Part shown: piece after piece, positions 34,301 to 40,300 of the stretch
Layout: every line of letters starts with the position of its first letter
Numbering within the stretch: the first letter of the stretch is position 1
Origin: Aspidapion aeneum
Taxonomy: Eukaryota > Arthropoda > Insecta > Coleoptera > Brentidae
DNA: 64,000 bases
Assembly (NCBI GenBank): GCA_963576565.1
Contig: OY755046.1
Location: forward strand, 63,399,379-63,463,378
Direction of reading: 5' to 3'
Program-made: the position numbers and the translations under genes
Notes under the pieces: generated by a model
Told to the model about the DNA's origin: nothing
The model's database searches: none
The model's input: only the letters and a program-made list of their open reading frames with translations

Positions 34301-37300
34301 TTGGCCATCTGCAATCGCGTGCGGAAAAGAGGCACTTTCCGCACTAGTTAGGTAAACTATTTCCTGCGAGCGTGCGGAAAAATTACTTTTCTGCACGATT
34401 TTTCGTTTGGAAAGATGTACTTTTCCGCACGATTTTACTTTTCCGCACCATTTTTACTTTTCCGCACGTCCAAAATGCAAGAATCCTCCTGTTCACAATC
34501 GTTTCCAAATGAAAATCCGTCCTCCTACACACAAGCGTCATTTTCAAGAAGTGCTGTTGTACCGATGCTACCAGAAGTACCGAAGGAAGAAACCATAAGG
34601 ACGAAACGGTTAACTGTCAACACTTATTAGGTGTCCATTAGATCTTGGACCCCCGTGAGGTTAAGCTTTCAAGCTACCCACGGAAAAATATAAGTGAAAC
34701 AAAAAACTCCTTTTTGCCCGATTAGCCATGAAACTTGTTTGATTTTTAAATTCACGGGTATGAAATTTCACCTTTGTTAGTATTATTTGGCTTAAAAATT
34801 CCGTTGATTGACGCTCACTGTCTTGATGACGGGTAAAAATGCAAAATGCGTTGATCCGGCCTGAAAAGACAAAGAGCTTGTCGTAGGTCACGGACTATAG
34901 TTGTTTTCTTTTATTTGCATTCGATCTTTTCATTGATCGATATTGTATAGCAGTGTTTTTCCCTGTTTTTGGTTTTTTGTTTCTCTCGTATCTCGGTAGA
35001 TGGCGCCTCTTGCTATAGTTCGCTCACTAATTACATTTAATTAGAGACAAAACCGTCTGATTAACTTCGCAAGATTTGTCACTTGACCAGCAGTGTTCTG
35101 AGGAGTCCCATAAGGACGAAACGGTTAACTGTCAACACTTATTAGGTGTCCATTAGATCTTGGACCCCCGTGAGGTTAAGCTTTCAAGCTACCCACGGAA
35201 AAATATAAGGGAAACAAAAAACTCCTTTTTGCCCGAATAGCCATGAAACTTGTTTAATCCTGTGATGTGTTACATCATGTACAGACCAATATACCTTCCT
35301 CCATTCACTACACTCGTAATTCTCAACAGCAAACTGATCAAGGCATTTCTGTAGTGGGCCAAACACCAACCAATCAAATTCAAATATGAAACGACGTTTT
35401 TTAAGATGTTGCGGCATCTGCTATATTGCAGCATGCCACAAACACAAAGTGCACTTTCAATTTCAATATTTACCATCGTTAACTTTTTCGTTATTGTTAG
35501 TTAAATATTATAATAAAAAAATCATGTTTCATTAGTTTTCCGCGCATAAAAATATCGTGTGGAAAAGTAAAAATCTTTTTGTTGTTTTTATTATATTTTT
35601 ATATATAATTGTTTTTTTAAATATCATTTTTATATTAGCTCACACATATACTATACTATAGTAGTGTGAGCTATGGTGATCCTAATTTTTTCGAGAAAAA
35701 AAAAGTTGCTCCGATTTCAAAATTTTTATATATCTTTGCGTTTCAGATGATTTTGAAACTTTTTTGTTGCGCCGTCTGTCTGTCTGTCTGTCTGTCTGTC
35801 TGTCTGTCTGTCTGTCTGTCTGTCTGTCTGTCTGTCTGTCTGTCTGTCTGTCTGTCTGTCTGTCTGTCTGTCTGTCTGTCTGTCTGTCTGTCTGTCTGTC
35901 TGTCTGTCTGTCTGTCTGTCTGTCTGTCTGTCTGTCTGTCTGTCTGTCTGTCTGTCTGTCTGTCTGTCTGTCTGTCTGTCTGTCTGTCTGTCTGTCTGTC
36001 TGTCTGTCTGTCTGTCTGTCTGTCTGTCTGTCTGTCTGTCTGTCTGTCTGTCTGTCTGTCTGTCTGTCTGTCTGTCTGTCTGTCTGTCTGTCTGTCTGTC
36101 TGTCTGTCTGTCTGTCTGTCTGTCTGTCTGTCTGTCTGTCTGTCTGTCTGTCTGTCTGTCTGTCTGTCGATTTCAATGAAATTTGGTACCTAGGCTGGGT
36201 GTTGGGTCGAGATGGTCCCATTTCAAAATGAACAAAATCCACCGAACACAAACCAAATAAAAGGGTGGGGATAGATTTCAAAAATTAGAGTTTAAGTGAA
36301 AATATGGCGTGTGATATCAAACGAAAGGTAATTGAGTCCGGAGTTTAACAAAATACATTTTAGTTTTTGTTTTTTTAAGGGTGGGGGTGGAATTCAAAAT
36401 TTTGAGTTTAAGTCAAAACATGGCTTGTGTGGTATCAAACAAAAGGTCATTTAGTGTGGAGTTGAATAAAATACATTTCAGTCTTTAGTTATATTAGCTC
36501 ACACGTACACTATAACTATAGTACCCAGTGTGAGCTTAGGGGCCCATATATTGGCAGAGTATTTTTATTATGCACCTATTACCTGTAATAATTCTGGGAG
36601 ATATACAGCAATTTCTTCCTTATCGGGCAGTGTCAAAGTGCCAAAATTATTTCTTTCCGATTTTTCCAAAGTGTTGGGAATCAAGTTGGCCCTGATATAT
36701 TTGCAAAATGTTTCAATTACTGTCATAACCATCATTTTAAATTCCGTTTGTCGACCGCTTTCAATTTTTACTTGAAGTTCGCCTAAAAAAGATTTACAAA
36801 AAAATGTAAAAAATGTATTATGATTAAAAAATAATAATTTTTTAACATTTTTGGTATACCTGAAAAATAAGCTTGTCCAATTTTCCAAAGATCAGGAAAC
36901 AGCTCGGCAATGTTAAGACAAATTTCGTCAATAAAATTGACAGATGACGGCACAACTGTCACATCGATGACAGGCGACTGAGTATATTTCGAATACTTCG
37001 AAGCACTGCCGCTTTTTTGGCTTTTCGATTCAGGTTTATCCAGATTTTTGTGGTAATTGTAAATAAGTTTAAATTTTTTGTGGATATAGTCTGAACGGGC
37101 CTTTATCGCGTTCCAGGCTGAGTCCCAGGGGGCCCCCAAGGTACTCAGATTCCTAGAAAGCAATACAAAAAAAACTCTATCAAAATAATGTATTATAAAG
37201 GTTTACTCAACTTTTTAAGAAAACTTTAAAGCTTATAAGAGAAATATACAATCAAACAAGTTTCATGGCTAATCGGGCAAAAAGGAGTTTTTTGTTTCCC

Positions 37301-40300
37301 TTATATTTTTCCGTGGGTAGCTTGAAAGCTTAACCTCACGGGGGTCCAAGATCTAATGGACACCTAATAAGTGTTGACAGTTAACCGTTTCGTCCTTATG
37401 GGACTCCTCAGAACACAGCTGGTCAAGTGACAAATCTTGCGAAGTTAATCAGATGGTTTTGTCTCTAATTAAATGTAATTAGTGAGCGAACTATAGCAAG
37501 AGGCGCCATCTACCGAGATACGAGAGAAACAAAAAACCAAAAGCAGGGAAAAATACTGCTATACAATATCGATCAATGAAAAGATCGAATGCAAATAAAA
37601 GAAAACAACTATAGTCCGTGACCTACGACAGCTCTTTGTCTTTTCAGGCCGGATCAATGCATTTTGCATTTTTACCCGTCATCAAGACAGTGAGCGTCAA
37701 TCAACGGAATTTTTAAGCCAAATAATACTAACAAACGTGATTTTATTTGCATTCGATCTTTTCATTGATCGATATTGTATAGCAGTGCTTTTCCCTGCTT
37801 TTGGTTTTTTGTTTCTCTCGTATCTCGGTGGATGGCGCCTCTTGCTATAGTTCGCTCACTAATTACATTTAATTAGATACAAAACCGTCTGATTAACTTC
37901 GCAAGATTTGTCACTTGACCAGCAGTGTTCTGAGGAGTCCCATAAGGACGAAACGGTTAACTGTCAACACTTATTAGGTGTCCATTAGATCTTGGACCCC
38001 CGTGAGGTTAAGCTTTCAAGCTACCCACGGAAAAATATAAGGGAAACAAAAAACTCCTTTTTGCCCGATTAGCGATGAAACTTGTTTGATTTTTAAATTC
38101 ACGGGTACGAAATTTCACGTTTGTGAGAAATATACAATGTCTGCCCAGTCCCAAGAGGACAAATGAACTAAACATTTTATTTTTAGACAAAAAAGACACT
38201 CTTCATAAAAAGTTCTACTTTTTTTTAATTGAATTGAACAGACTGTTGCTATAATTTAAAAATATTATATAGGGCGTCAAGAACCAAGAATACATGAAAT
38301 ACTACCAAAAATAAACATTTTAAATCCTATACCATAAAAAAAATAAATTTACAGAAAATAAAAGTTTTTTTGTCGATTCCTCACCTTATAAGTCTTTTTT
38401 GTTGCTCAACAGTGATAGGCATAATCTGCAGATCTTCATGGAGTTTTTTCTGCAGTTCCACAATTCTTTTTTCGACTTCGTTAAGGGCTGTTTTAAAGAC
38501 TGGAACGTCAGTTTTCTCGAAGAGTTTCTTTACACGAATGTAATCTGTTATAGCCGATTCATAGTCTCCCTTTTTTACATTTCTGTCGATCACGCAGGGC
38601 AAGCAAAACAAAAATTTAAATCTAAAAATAAAAAATAAATCTTTTTGATATCTCTTTCTAATCTCTGCTGGGTGTTGAATAACATGGTAATATTTAAGGA
38701 AGTCGTTATTGGGTCCATTTTGGGAAAAACACTTCACATGAACATATGTTTCAAACGTCTTAATTTTGAGATAGTACAGATTTGAGTGCCGGTATGGTAC
38801 AAATGACAAAAAAATTGTGATCCTGATTTTTTTGGAAATCGCCCCTGCTTGGTTTCAAACTAAGATATTAGGAAAATGAGCTAAATCAATTAATGTACAG
38901 GGTGGTTTGGTAATTTGATTTGATAAGGTAAGGTATAAAAGACAAAAACTTTTCTATTGAGATTCTGAATTTCTGGGAATTGCTCCTGCTTGGTTGCAAA
39001 CTAAGATGAGCCAAATTAATTAATATACAGGGTGGTTTAGTAGGCTGATCTGATAAAAAGTGTTAAGAGTAAAGTACCTTTATTTTAAAAGATATCGGAA
39101 AAGGTTATACAAAAGAGTTGCTTAGAATCAAAAGCAGATTCTCAATTTTTCAGAAAAATCAGCCAACTTTAATTTAGTAAGTCGGTTATGAAAATTTTTC
39201 TTTAAAAACGGCAGTTACTTTTAATTCTAAACATTTCTTAATAACTTTTTCTGATATCTTTTAAAATACTCTGCCAATATATGGGCCCCTAAGCTCACAC
39301 TAGGTACTATAGTTATAGTGTACGTGTGAGCTAATATAACTAAAAACTAAAATATATTTTATTCAACTCCAGACTAAATTACCTTTTGTTTGATATCACA
39401 CAAGCCATGTTTTGACTTAAACTCAAATTTTTGAAATCTACCCCCACCCTTAAAAAAACAAAAACTAAAATGTATTTTGTTAAACTCCGGACTCAATTAC
39501 CTTTCGTTTGATATCACACACGCCATATTTTCACTTAAACTCTAATTTTTGAAATATACCTCCACCCTTTTTTTTAAATAAATTAAAATGTATTTTGTTT
39601 AACTCCAGACTCAATTACCTTTCGTTTGATATCACACACACCATATTTTCACTTAAACTCTAATTTTTGAAATCTACCCCCACCCTTTTATTTGGTTTGT
39701 GTTCGGTGGATTTTGTTCATTTTTAAATGGGACCATCTCGTCCCAAAACCCAGCCTAGGTACCAAATTTCATTAAATTCGGCCAAGCGGTTTTTGAGTTA
39801 TGCGCGTTGGTCGTTACAGACAGACAGACAGACATACAGACAGACAGACAGACATACATACAGACAGACAGACAGACAGACGGCGCAACAAAAAAGTTTC
39901 AAAATCATCTAAAACGCAAAGATATATAAAAAATTTTGAAATCGGAGCAACTTTTTTTTTCTCGAAAAAATTAGGATCACCATAGCTCACACTACTTTTA
40001 TCCAATCAGCCTACTAAACCACATATTAATTTATTTGGCTTATTTTCTTAACATGTTAGTTTAAGACCAAGCAGGAGCAATTCTCAGAAAATCAGAATCT
40101 AAATCGAAATTTTGTTGTCACTTATACCTTACCTCCACTCAATACATAGAAACATTGTAGATATTTTTGTTAAATTTGCTACACACTTTCTGTTCCTCAA
40201 TATACTTTTCCACACATGTGCGGAAAAATTTCTGCACACGGGTGAAATTTAACTTTTTCTGACCATGCATATCGTGTAACATTCATCATTTTCATATGTG

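What the first reader, a model, noticed from the sequence alone, without database searches (positions are those of the whole stretch)
34593..38124. Hammerhead ribozymes in a coding-free retroelement family
Three complete type I hammerhead motifs (35092-35139 +, 37371-37416 -, 37924-37971 +) and one half motif occur in two element copies. All invariant positions are visible: CTGAGGA, a 4-bp stem II with GTCC/GGAC, GAAA, a short stem III with TTAA loop, and cleavage triplet GTC, with stem I formed by AGTGTT/AACACT. Copy A is a 515-bp tandem unit; copy B is two inverted partial units inside a 14-bp target duplication. Established: Penelope-like elements and retrozymes carry such ribozymes in their repeated ends. 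Inference: a non-autonomous, possibly circular-RNA-producing family here, mobilised by a Penelope-type RT encoded elsewhere.
Basis: partly seen in the sequence, partly recalled or inferred. Interest (0 to 1): 0.88.

Follow-up and report, generated by a model that had tools for sequence, protein, structure and literature searches.

The report
Penelope-style jumping element with self-cutting RNA
Two fairly recent insertions in introns of an insect gene belong to a short jumping element that seems to make no protein, carries an RNA-cutting hammerhead motif, and ends the way Penelope retroelements end, which suggests that a Penelope enzyme encoded elsewhere moves it.

Summary
Three type I hammerhead motifs and one half motif lie at the stated coordinates, in a tandem copy (A, 34593-35258, period 515 bp) and a head-to-head inverted copy (B, 37253-38124) flanked by a perfect 14-bp target duplication. 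Rfam sees them only below its gathering score (24.7, 24.7, 20.4 against 34). A descriptor finds these three sites and none in 300 random sequences, but it was written after seeing the motif, and the sites are copies of one.

No coding sequence was recognised in the unit. Both copies lie in introns of an exocyst Sec5 gene of an insect, probably a beetle.

New here: the three 3' ends fall at two sites about 36 bp apart, and the inverted copy has one arm ending at each. That matches the 30-40 bp 'tail' described as unique to Penelope-like elements (PLEs) and explained in vitro by two reverse-transcription start sites. Head-to-head inversion is also PLE-typical.

Best reading: a retrozyme-like, non-autonomous element mobilised by a PLE enzyme. 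Circular RNA, self-cleavage and the enzyme's presence in this genome are untested; the genome search did not complete.

The parts
34593..35258 (+). Copy A: 1.29 tandem units (period 515), 5' end at the edge of hammerhead loop II, 3' end after ACTTGTTT without the tail (35255-35258, ambiguous by 3 nt)
34593..34624 (+). Half hammerhead (last base of the 5' strand of stem II to the 3' strand of stem I)
34742..34777 (+). Tail: about 36 bp between the two alternative 3' ends, internal here because the unit is in tandem
35092..35139 (+). Complete type I hammerhead; predicted cut between 35133 and 35134
   Evidence: RF00163 24.7 bits; descriptor
37239..37252 (.). Target-site duplication, left copy (GAGAAATATACAAT)
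37253..37740 (-). Copy B minus arm, 488 bp, 3' end at 37253 without tail (the next 3 nt, ATT, fit both element and target)
37371..37416 (-). Complete hammerhead with 5-bp stem I (outer pair lost); sense to the Sec5 gene
   Evidence: RF00163 20.4 bits
37741..38124 (+). Copy B plus arm, 384 bp, 3' end at 38124 with the tail; 5' end joined without filler to the 5' end of the minus arm
37924..37971 (+). Complete type I hammerhead; predicted cut between 37965 and 37966
   Evidence: RF00163 24.7 bits
38125..38138 (.). Target-site duplication, right copy
36783..37202 (-). Open frame holding a Sec5 exon (profile 255-377) on one side of copy B
   Evidence: PF15469
38381..38854 (-). Open frame holding a Sec5 exon (profile 150-255) on the other side of copy B, so copy B is intronic
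   Evidence: PF15469
29727..29978 (-). Open frame holding a Sec5 exon (profile 460-537); with the frame at 36783-37202 it brackets copy A
   Evidence: PF15469 E 9.4e-11

Best explanation
This is a coding-free, retrozyme-like element of about 515 bp per unit. It is transcribed as an RNA holding more than one unit and is inserted by a Penelope-like RT with GIY-YIG endonuclease made elsewhere. The enzyme starts reverse transcription inside the RNA at either of two sites, 123 or 159 nt past the hammerhead cut, which gives copies without or with the 36-bp tail. Copy A is one ordinary 5'-truncated insertion reaching over a unit boundary. Copy B is read as a two-ended insertion: both target strands were cut 14 bp apart, each was extended on an element RNA, one from each start site, and the two cDNAs met 5' to 5'. 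Shown by sequence: hammerhead motifs, tandem and inverted anatomy, the two 3' end sites, the target duplication, no recognised coding sequence. Inferred: the PLE enzyme, the multimeric RNA, the two-ended priming, self-cleavage (perhaps as a dimer, since the TTAA loop of stem III is self-complementary), and circular RNA.
For: Copy A and the minus arm of B end within 3 nt of each other after ACTTGTTT, and the plus arm of B ends about 36 bp further on. If ends were uniform over 515 positions, such a pattern has probability about 0.001, computed after the fact. [quoted passage not shown] The Anolis PLE protein starts reverse transcription at two adjacent internal sites that define the tail, cuts and extends both strands, and prefers AT-rich DNA with ATT (PMC11167929, passages); the minus arm of B abuts ATT and the duplication is 11 of 14 A or T. 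In that element the hammerhead cut is 26 bp and the start site 111-118 bp into the ORF, so about 85-92 nt apart, a spacing of the same order. The hammerhead core and stem II match the Rfam consensus. Two 48-nt strands cofold exactly into the dimeric hammerhead at -29.4 kcal/mol, against -9.1 per strand for the monomer minimum and -8.5 for the monomer hammerhead.
Against: Only two loci and three 3' ends are known. No PLE open frame was found: of the 20 ORFs match RVT_1 (one below its cut-off), both LINE-like by my reading, and none GIY-YIG; most other ORFs of the window were not scanned. The 14-bp duplication is longer than those of the Adineta passages, and copy A shows none (PLE insertions without one are reported). 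The DNA around copy B is 77% A+T on the left but 60% on the right, against 66% for the window. In 116-nt context the hammerhead fold is 5.2 to 6.7 kcal/mol above the minimum, and at 80 nt or more the dimer minimum no longer holds the dimeric hammerhead. A circularised unit is not unusually structured (z -1.2). [quoted passage not shown] The unit exceeds the 150-450 bp reported for animal repeats (PMC7229834).
Confidence: 0.66

Rival explanations
1. The 515-bp unit is not an independent family but the pseudo-LTR (or an internally deleted copy) of an autonomous PLE of this genome, seen here twice without its ORF. The insertion mechanism is the same.
For: PLE tandem copies form pLTRs, which in several animals carry hammerheads, and solo pLTRs and pLTR-bounded non-coding inserts occur (PMC3846280; PMC7761336). 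The hammerhead, tail and inversion would all be inherited from the PLE.
Against: Both loci show the same coding-free 515-bp structure across the unit boundary at about 98% identity, which favours a form that propagates as such. The Adineta pLTRs in the passages read are 181-218 bp. Of 8 unit ORFs scanned none matches a PLE domain; 21 of the 29 listed ORFs were not scanned.
Confidence: 0.22
2. A LINE machinery inserted the element, and copy B is a twin-priming inversion of a multimeric RNA.
For: LINE-like remnants are present in the window (RVT_1). Copy B can be drawn as twin priming on an RNA of about two units. Target duplications of 14 bp are ordinary for LINEs (recalled).
Against: No poly-A or simple-repeat 3' end. 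Two 3' ends about 36 bp apart fit the tail that is described as unique to PLEs (PMC11167929).
Confidence: 0.07
3. An ordinary satellite or tandem repeat with a hammerhead, like pDo500 of cave crickets, spread by recombination rather than reverse transcription.
For: A hammerhead in an insect satellite (PMC2837043 passages; PMC2808323 listing); a unit of about 500 bp there is my reading of the family name.
Against: The copies here are single insertions in introns, one with a perfect 14-bp target duplication and an inversion; no long array in the window.
Confidence: 0.03
4. The hammerhead match is a chance resemblance in an unrelated repeat.
For: Below the Rfam gathering score; hammerhead not the predicted minimum fold.
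Against: The core, all three stems and the cut triplet are present; 0 descriptor matches in 300 random sequences (descriptor written after the fact); the repeat also has PLE anatomy, and PLEs carry such motifs.
Confidence: 0.02

Closest known systems
Metazoan non-LTR retrozymes (Cervera and de la Pena 2020, PMC7229834; two sections and passages read)
   Same: Coding-free tandem repeat with type I hammerhead, GC below 50% (38.6% here), target duplication longer than 4 bp, animal genome. Its authors name PLEs as a strong candidate for mobilisation.
   Different: Unit of 515 bp rather than 150-450 bp; ribozyme fold less clear; circular RNA not tested; carries PLE 3'-end anatomy, which the parts I read do not report for retrozymes.
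Penelope-like elements of the Penelope/Poseidon clade (PMC3846280, PMC11167929; passages read)
   Same: Hammerhead about 100 nt before the 3' ends, tandem pLTR-like arrangement, optional 30-40 bp tail, head-to-head inversion with the tail on one arm, target duplication.
   Different: No ORF, RT or GIY-YIG recognised; target duplication of 14 bp rather than 8-10 bp.
pDo500 satellite of Dolichopoda cave crickets (PMC2837043, passages read)
   Same: Insect, non-coding, hammerhead, a G-U pair in stem III.
   Different: Here dispersed insertions with a target duplication, not satellite arrays; no sequence comparison was made.
Hammerheads of axolotl repeats, more active as dimers (PMC7229834)
   Same: Stem III capped by a self-complementary tetraloop.
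   Different: Stem III has four pairs here (counting the A-U next to the core), one or two in the axolotl motifs as that paper counts them. The same paper finds most invertebrate motifs efficient in self-cleavage.

Membership tests
Type I hammerhead ribozyme | Conserved core CUGANGA / GAAA / UH with three helices, stem I open | tested here: met
   core, stem I 5-6 bp, II 4 bp, III 4 bp, triplet GTC in 3 of 3 complete motifs
Type I hammerhead ribozyme | Curated Rfam score (34 bits) | tested here: not met
   best 24.7 bits; a database threshold, not a property of the ribozyme
Type I hammerhead ribozyme | Self-cleavage | not testable with these tools
   fold predictions are mixed
Metazoan retrozyme | Coding-free repeat with type I hammerhead | tested here: met
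   (longest frame touching the unit 92 aa; 8 of 29 short ORFs scanned)
Metazoan retrozyme | Unit of 150-450 bp | tested here: not met
   515 bp
Metazoan retrozyme | Loop 1 / loop 2 tertiary contacts of the canonical motif | tested here: inconclusive
   stem I is continuous for 6 bp and the constrained fold shows no outer helix that continues it; tertiary contacts are not predicted by the tool
Metazoan retrozyme | Expressed as circular RNA | not testable with these tools
   no reads available
Metazoan retrozyme | Multicopy, dispersed in the genome | tested here: inconclusive
   two loci in 64 kb; genome search did not complete (12 calls)
Penelope-like element | ORF with RT and, in most animal forms, GIY-YIG endonuclease | tested here: not met
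   no long frame in the unit; no match in 8 of 29 ORFs scanned
Penelope-like element | Tandem pLTR-like arrangement | tested here: met
   copy A
Penelope-like element | Optional 30-40 bp tail at the 3' end | tested here: met
   3 ends at two sites about 36 bp apart, 2 without and 1 with tail
Penelope-like element | Head-to-head inverted copies inside a target duplication | tested here: met
   copy B

The most novel reading that the evidence does not exclude
Animal retrozymes are parasites of Penelope elements, and copy B is a snapshot of the reaction: a two-ended insertion in which both target strands were primed, one from each of the two reverse-transcription start sites of the same small non-coding RNA. 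The minus arm also begins within 10 nt of the other start site (equivalent 34768 against 34777), as if the enzyme bound there stopped the cDNA, so that a single RNA motif sets both where copying begins and where it ends. That would explain the head-to-head inversions of PLEs without self-priming on antisense RNA.
Probability: 0.25. Interest if true: 0.75.

Novelty: new member of a known kind. Interest (0 to 1): 0.5.

Why it matters
Which enzyme moves animal retrozymes is open in the papers I read: in 2020 PLEs were called a strong or likely candidate because of shared hammerheads, tandem arrangement and co-occurrence (PMC7229834, PMC7761336), and a 2022 guide says retrozymes may rely on PLEs (PMC8969392). 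The 3'-end anatomy gives a direct, cheap test: if retrozyme copies end at two sites 30-40 bp apart and invert head to head, the PLE enzyme made them. In six literature searches I saw no report of a PLE tail in a retrozyme, but I saw listings and, of seven papers, passages or sections only, and three central papers are not held.

Tried and rejected
Whole-genome copy count and search for an autonomous PLE: the genome search (own) was asked 12 times and never answered. Exact-pattern scans for the motif gave 0 matches in viral contigs and 0 in genome contigs; these collections hold viruses and prokaryotes, so this says little. ARAGORN found no tRNA in the window. A circularised unit is not clearly more structured than 60 Markov shuffles (z -1.2). 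The single-strand MFE of the 61-nt region is another fold (z -0.96). The loose pattern CTGANGA...GAAA alone is weak (8 seen, 4.2 expected, 4 of 100 shuffles with at least as many). A dimeric hammerhead is the cofold minimum at 48 and 60 nt but not at 80, 116 or 156 nt, so dimer action is only a possibility; a self-complementary 4-nt loop has a chance of 1 in 16. Selection on the hammerhead cannot be claimed: copies are about 98% alike, so an unchanged core is expected anyway. Twin priming of LINE type was considered and set second among the mechanisms. A possible further Sec5 exon at 36571-36783 gave no Sec5 match. The species is not identified.
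Full report
What is there. The window is eukaryotic, insect-like DNA. Copy A (34593-35258, +) and copy B (37253-38124, two arms) share a unit with a period of 515 bp; blastn with words of 7 and E up to 0.001 found no other copy in the 64 kb. Identities between arms are 97.8 to 99.3%, so the insertions look fairly young.

Is it a hammerhead. The core and stems are present: CTGAGGA, GAAA, cut triplet GTC, stem II GTCC/GGAC around CATAA, stem III ACGG/CTGT around TTAA, stem I AGTGTT/AACACT. 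Arm B- has T in place of A at the outer pair of stem I, leaving 5 bp. Core position 7, said to be free to vary, is G (PMC2837043, passages). Rfam gives 24.7, 24.7 and 20.4 bits, below the curated 34, and in the whole window the E-values are weak (0.13 for two, the third not listed up to E 1). A strict descriptor finds only these three sites and nothing in 300 Markov sequences; it was written after the fact and counts one motif three times. I take the motif as real because it also sits in the kind of element that carries such motifs.

Can it act. The hammerhead fold of the 48-nt motif is -8.5 against a minimum of -9.1 kcal/mol. In 116 nt of context it lies 5.2 kcal/mol above the minimum in copies A and B+, 6.7 in B-. 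Two 48-nt strands cofold exactly into a dimeric hammerhead with a 12-bp stem III (-29.4), because TTAA is self-complementary; this holds at 60 nt but not at 80, 116 or 156 nt. PLE hammerheads may act as dimers and axolotl ones cleave better as dimers, while most invertebrate retrozyme motifs cleave well as monomers (PMC7761336 and PMC7229834, passages; the 2017 Lunse paper is known to me only from reference lists). Activity is plausible and unproven. [quoted passage not shown]

The 3' ends. Copy A ends at 35255-35258 after ACTTGTTT. The minus arm of B ends at 37253 after ACTTGTTTG. The plus arm ends at 38124 after CACGTTTGT, which in unit terms is about 36 bp further on (34741 against 34777). 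Measured from the predicted cut (after 34618 in unit terms) these are 123 and 159 nt. PLEs have an optional extension of 30-40 bp, the tail, found in a fraction of copies; [quoted passage not shown] Copy B shows just that. With ends drawn at random the pattern has probability about 0.001 (after the fact, three ends only).

The inverted copy. Both 3' ends of copy B face the flanking DNA, each beside one copy of GAGAAATATACAAT, and the 5' ends meet at 37740/37741 without filler. The Anolis PLE protein cuts and extends both strands in vitro. I therefore read copy B as two-ended target priming, one arm from each start site. The 2013 authors instead favoured self-priming on antisense RNA, citing palindromes at the junction, and held other possibilities open. 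I cannot decide between them from one copy. Unexplained: the minus arm begins at a position equivalent to 34768, so its first 10 nt repeat the last 10 nt of the plus arm.

Setting. Frames matching exocyst Sec5 (PF15469) lie on the minus strand at 42212-42544 (profile 1-59), 38381-38854 (150-255), 36783-37202 (255-377), 29727-29978 (460-537) and 21385-21780 (662-746). Copy B lies between the second and third, copy A between the third and fourth (the exons for profile 378-459 were not located), so both are in introns. The hammerhead of B- is sense to the gene, but arm B+ is transcribed just before it and is 97% complementary over 360 nt, so the pre-mRNA would probably form a long hairpin that hides the ribozyme (inference).

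What it is. It resembles an animal retrozyme: no recognised coding sequence, tandem, type I hammerhead, target duplication. It fails one listed feature, size (515 against 150-450 bp), and circular RNA is untested; so I call it retrozyme-like. It is not itself a PLE, since no ORF was found, but it carries PLE end anatomy. That the unit is the pLTR of an autonomous PLE remains open because the genome could not be searched.

Noticed in passing
30020-34470: Tandem units of about 1.8 kb, each with a 420-aa tyrosine-recombinase frame (30383-31645 and 32190-33452), then a truncated third copy near 34090, separated by GTGCGGAAAAG-type repeats; named relatives are nearly all insect, many from beetles. 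It looks like a Crypton-type element or a tandemly amplified recombinase gene (name recalled).
   Followed up: partly
19120-19535, 25058-26066, 35774-36486, 39342-39881, 60443-60947, 62578-63075: A recurring composite of (GTCT)n or (ACAG)n microsatellite and a minisatellite of 113-120 bp, in both orientations; at 35630 and 36489 a shared 26-bp stretch with TTATATTAGCTCACAC lies at its edges. Probably one dispersed element family with inner tandem repeats.
   Followed up: no
37241-38100: The two arms of copy B form a 360-bp inverted repeat, 97% complementary with 140 nt between, inside a Sec5 intron; the transcript could form a long double strand.
   Followed up: no
37731-37740 and 38115-38124: The first 10 nt of the minus arm repeat the last 10 nt of the plus arm, so the minus cDNA stopped close to the other supposed reverse-transcription start site.
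   Followed up: partly
24068-24976: Arrays of ACAGTACCCG-like 10-bp repeats and 2.2 tandem copies of a 120-bp unit, close to a 542-bp (GTCT)n run at 25058-25599.
   Followed up: no
551-3873: LINE-like pieces in opposite orientation: an endonuclease-bearing frame on the minus strand and a reverse-transcriptase frame on the plus strand.
   Followed up: no
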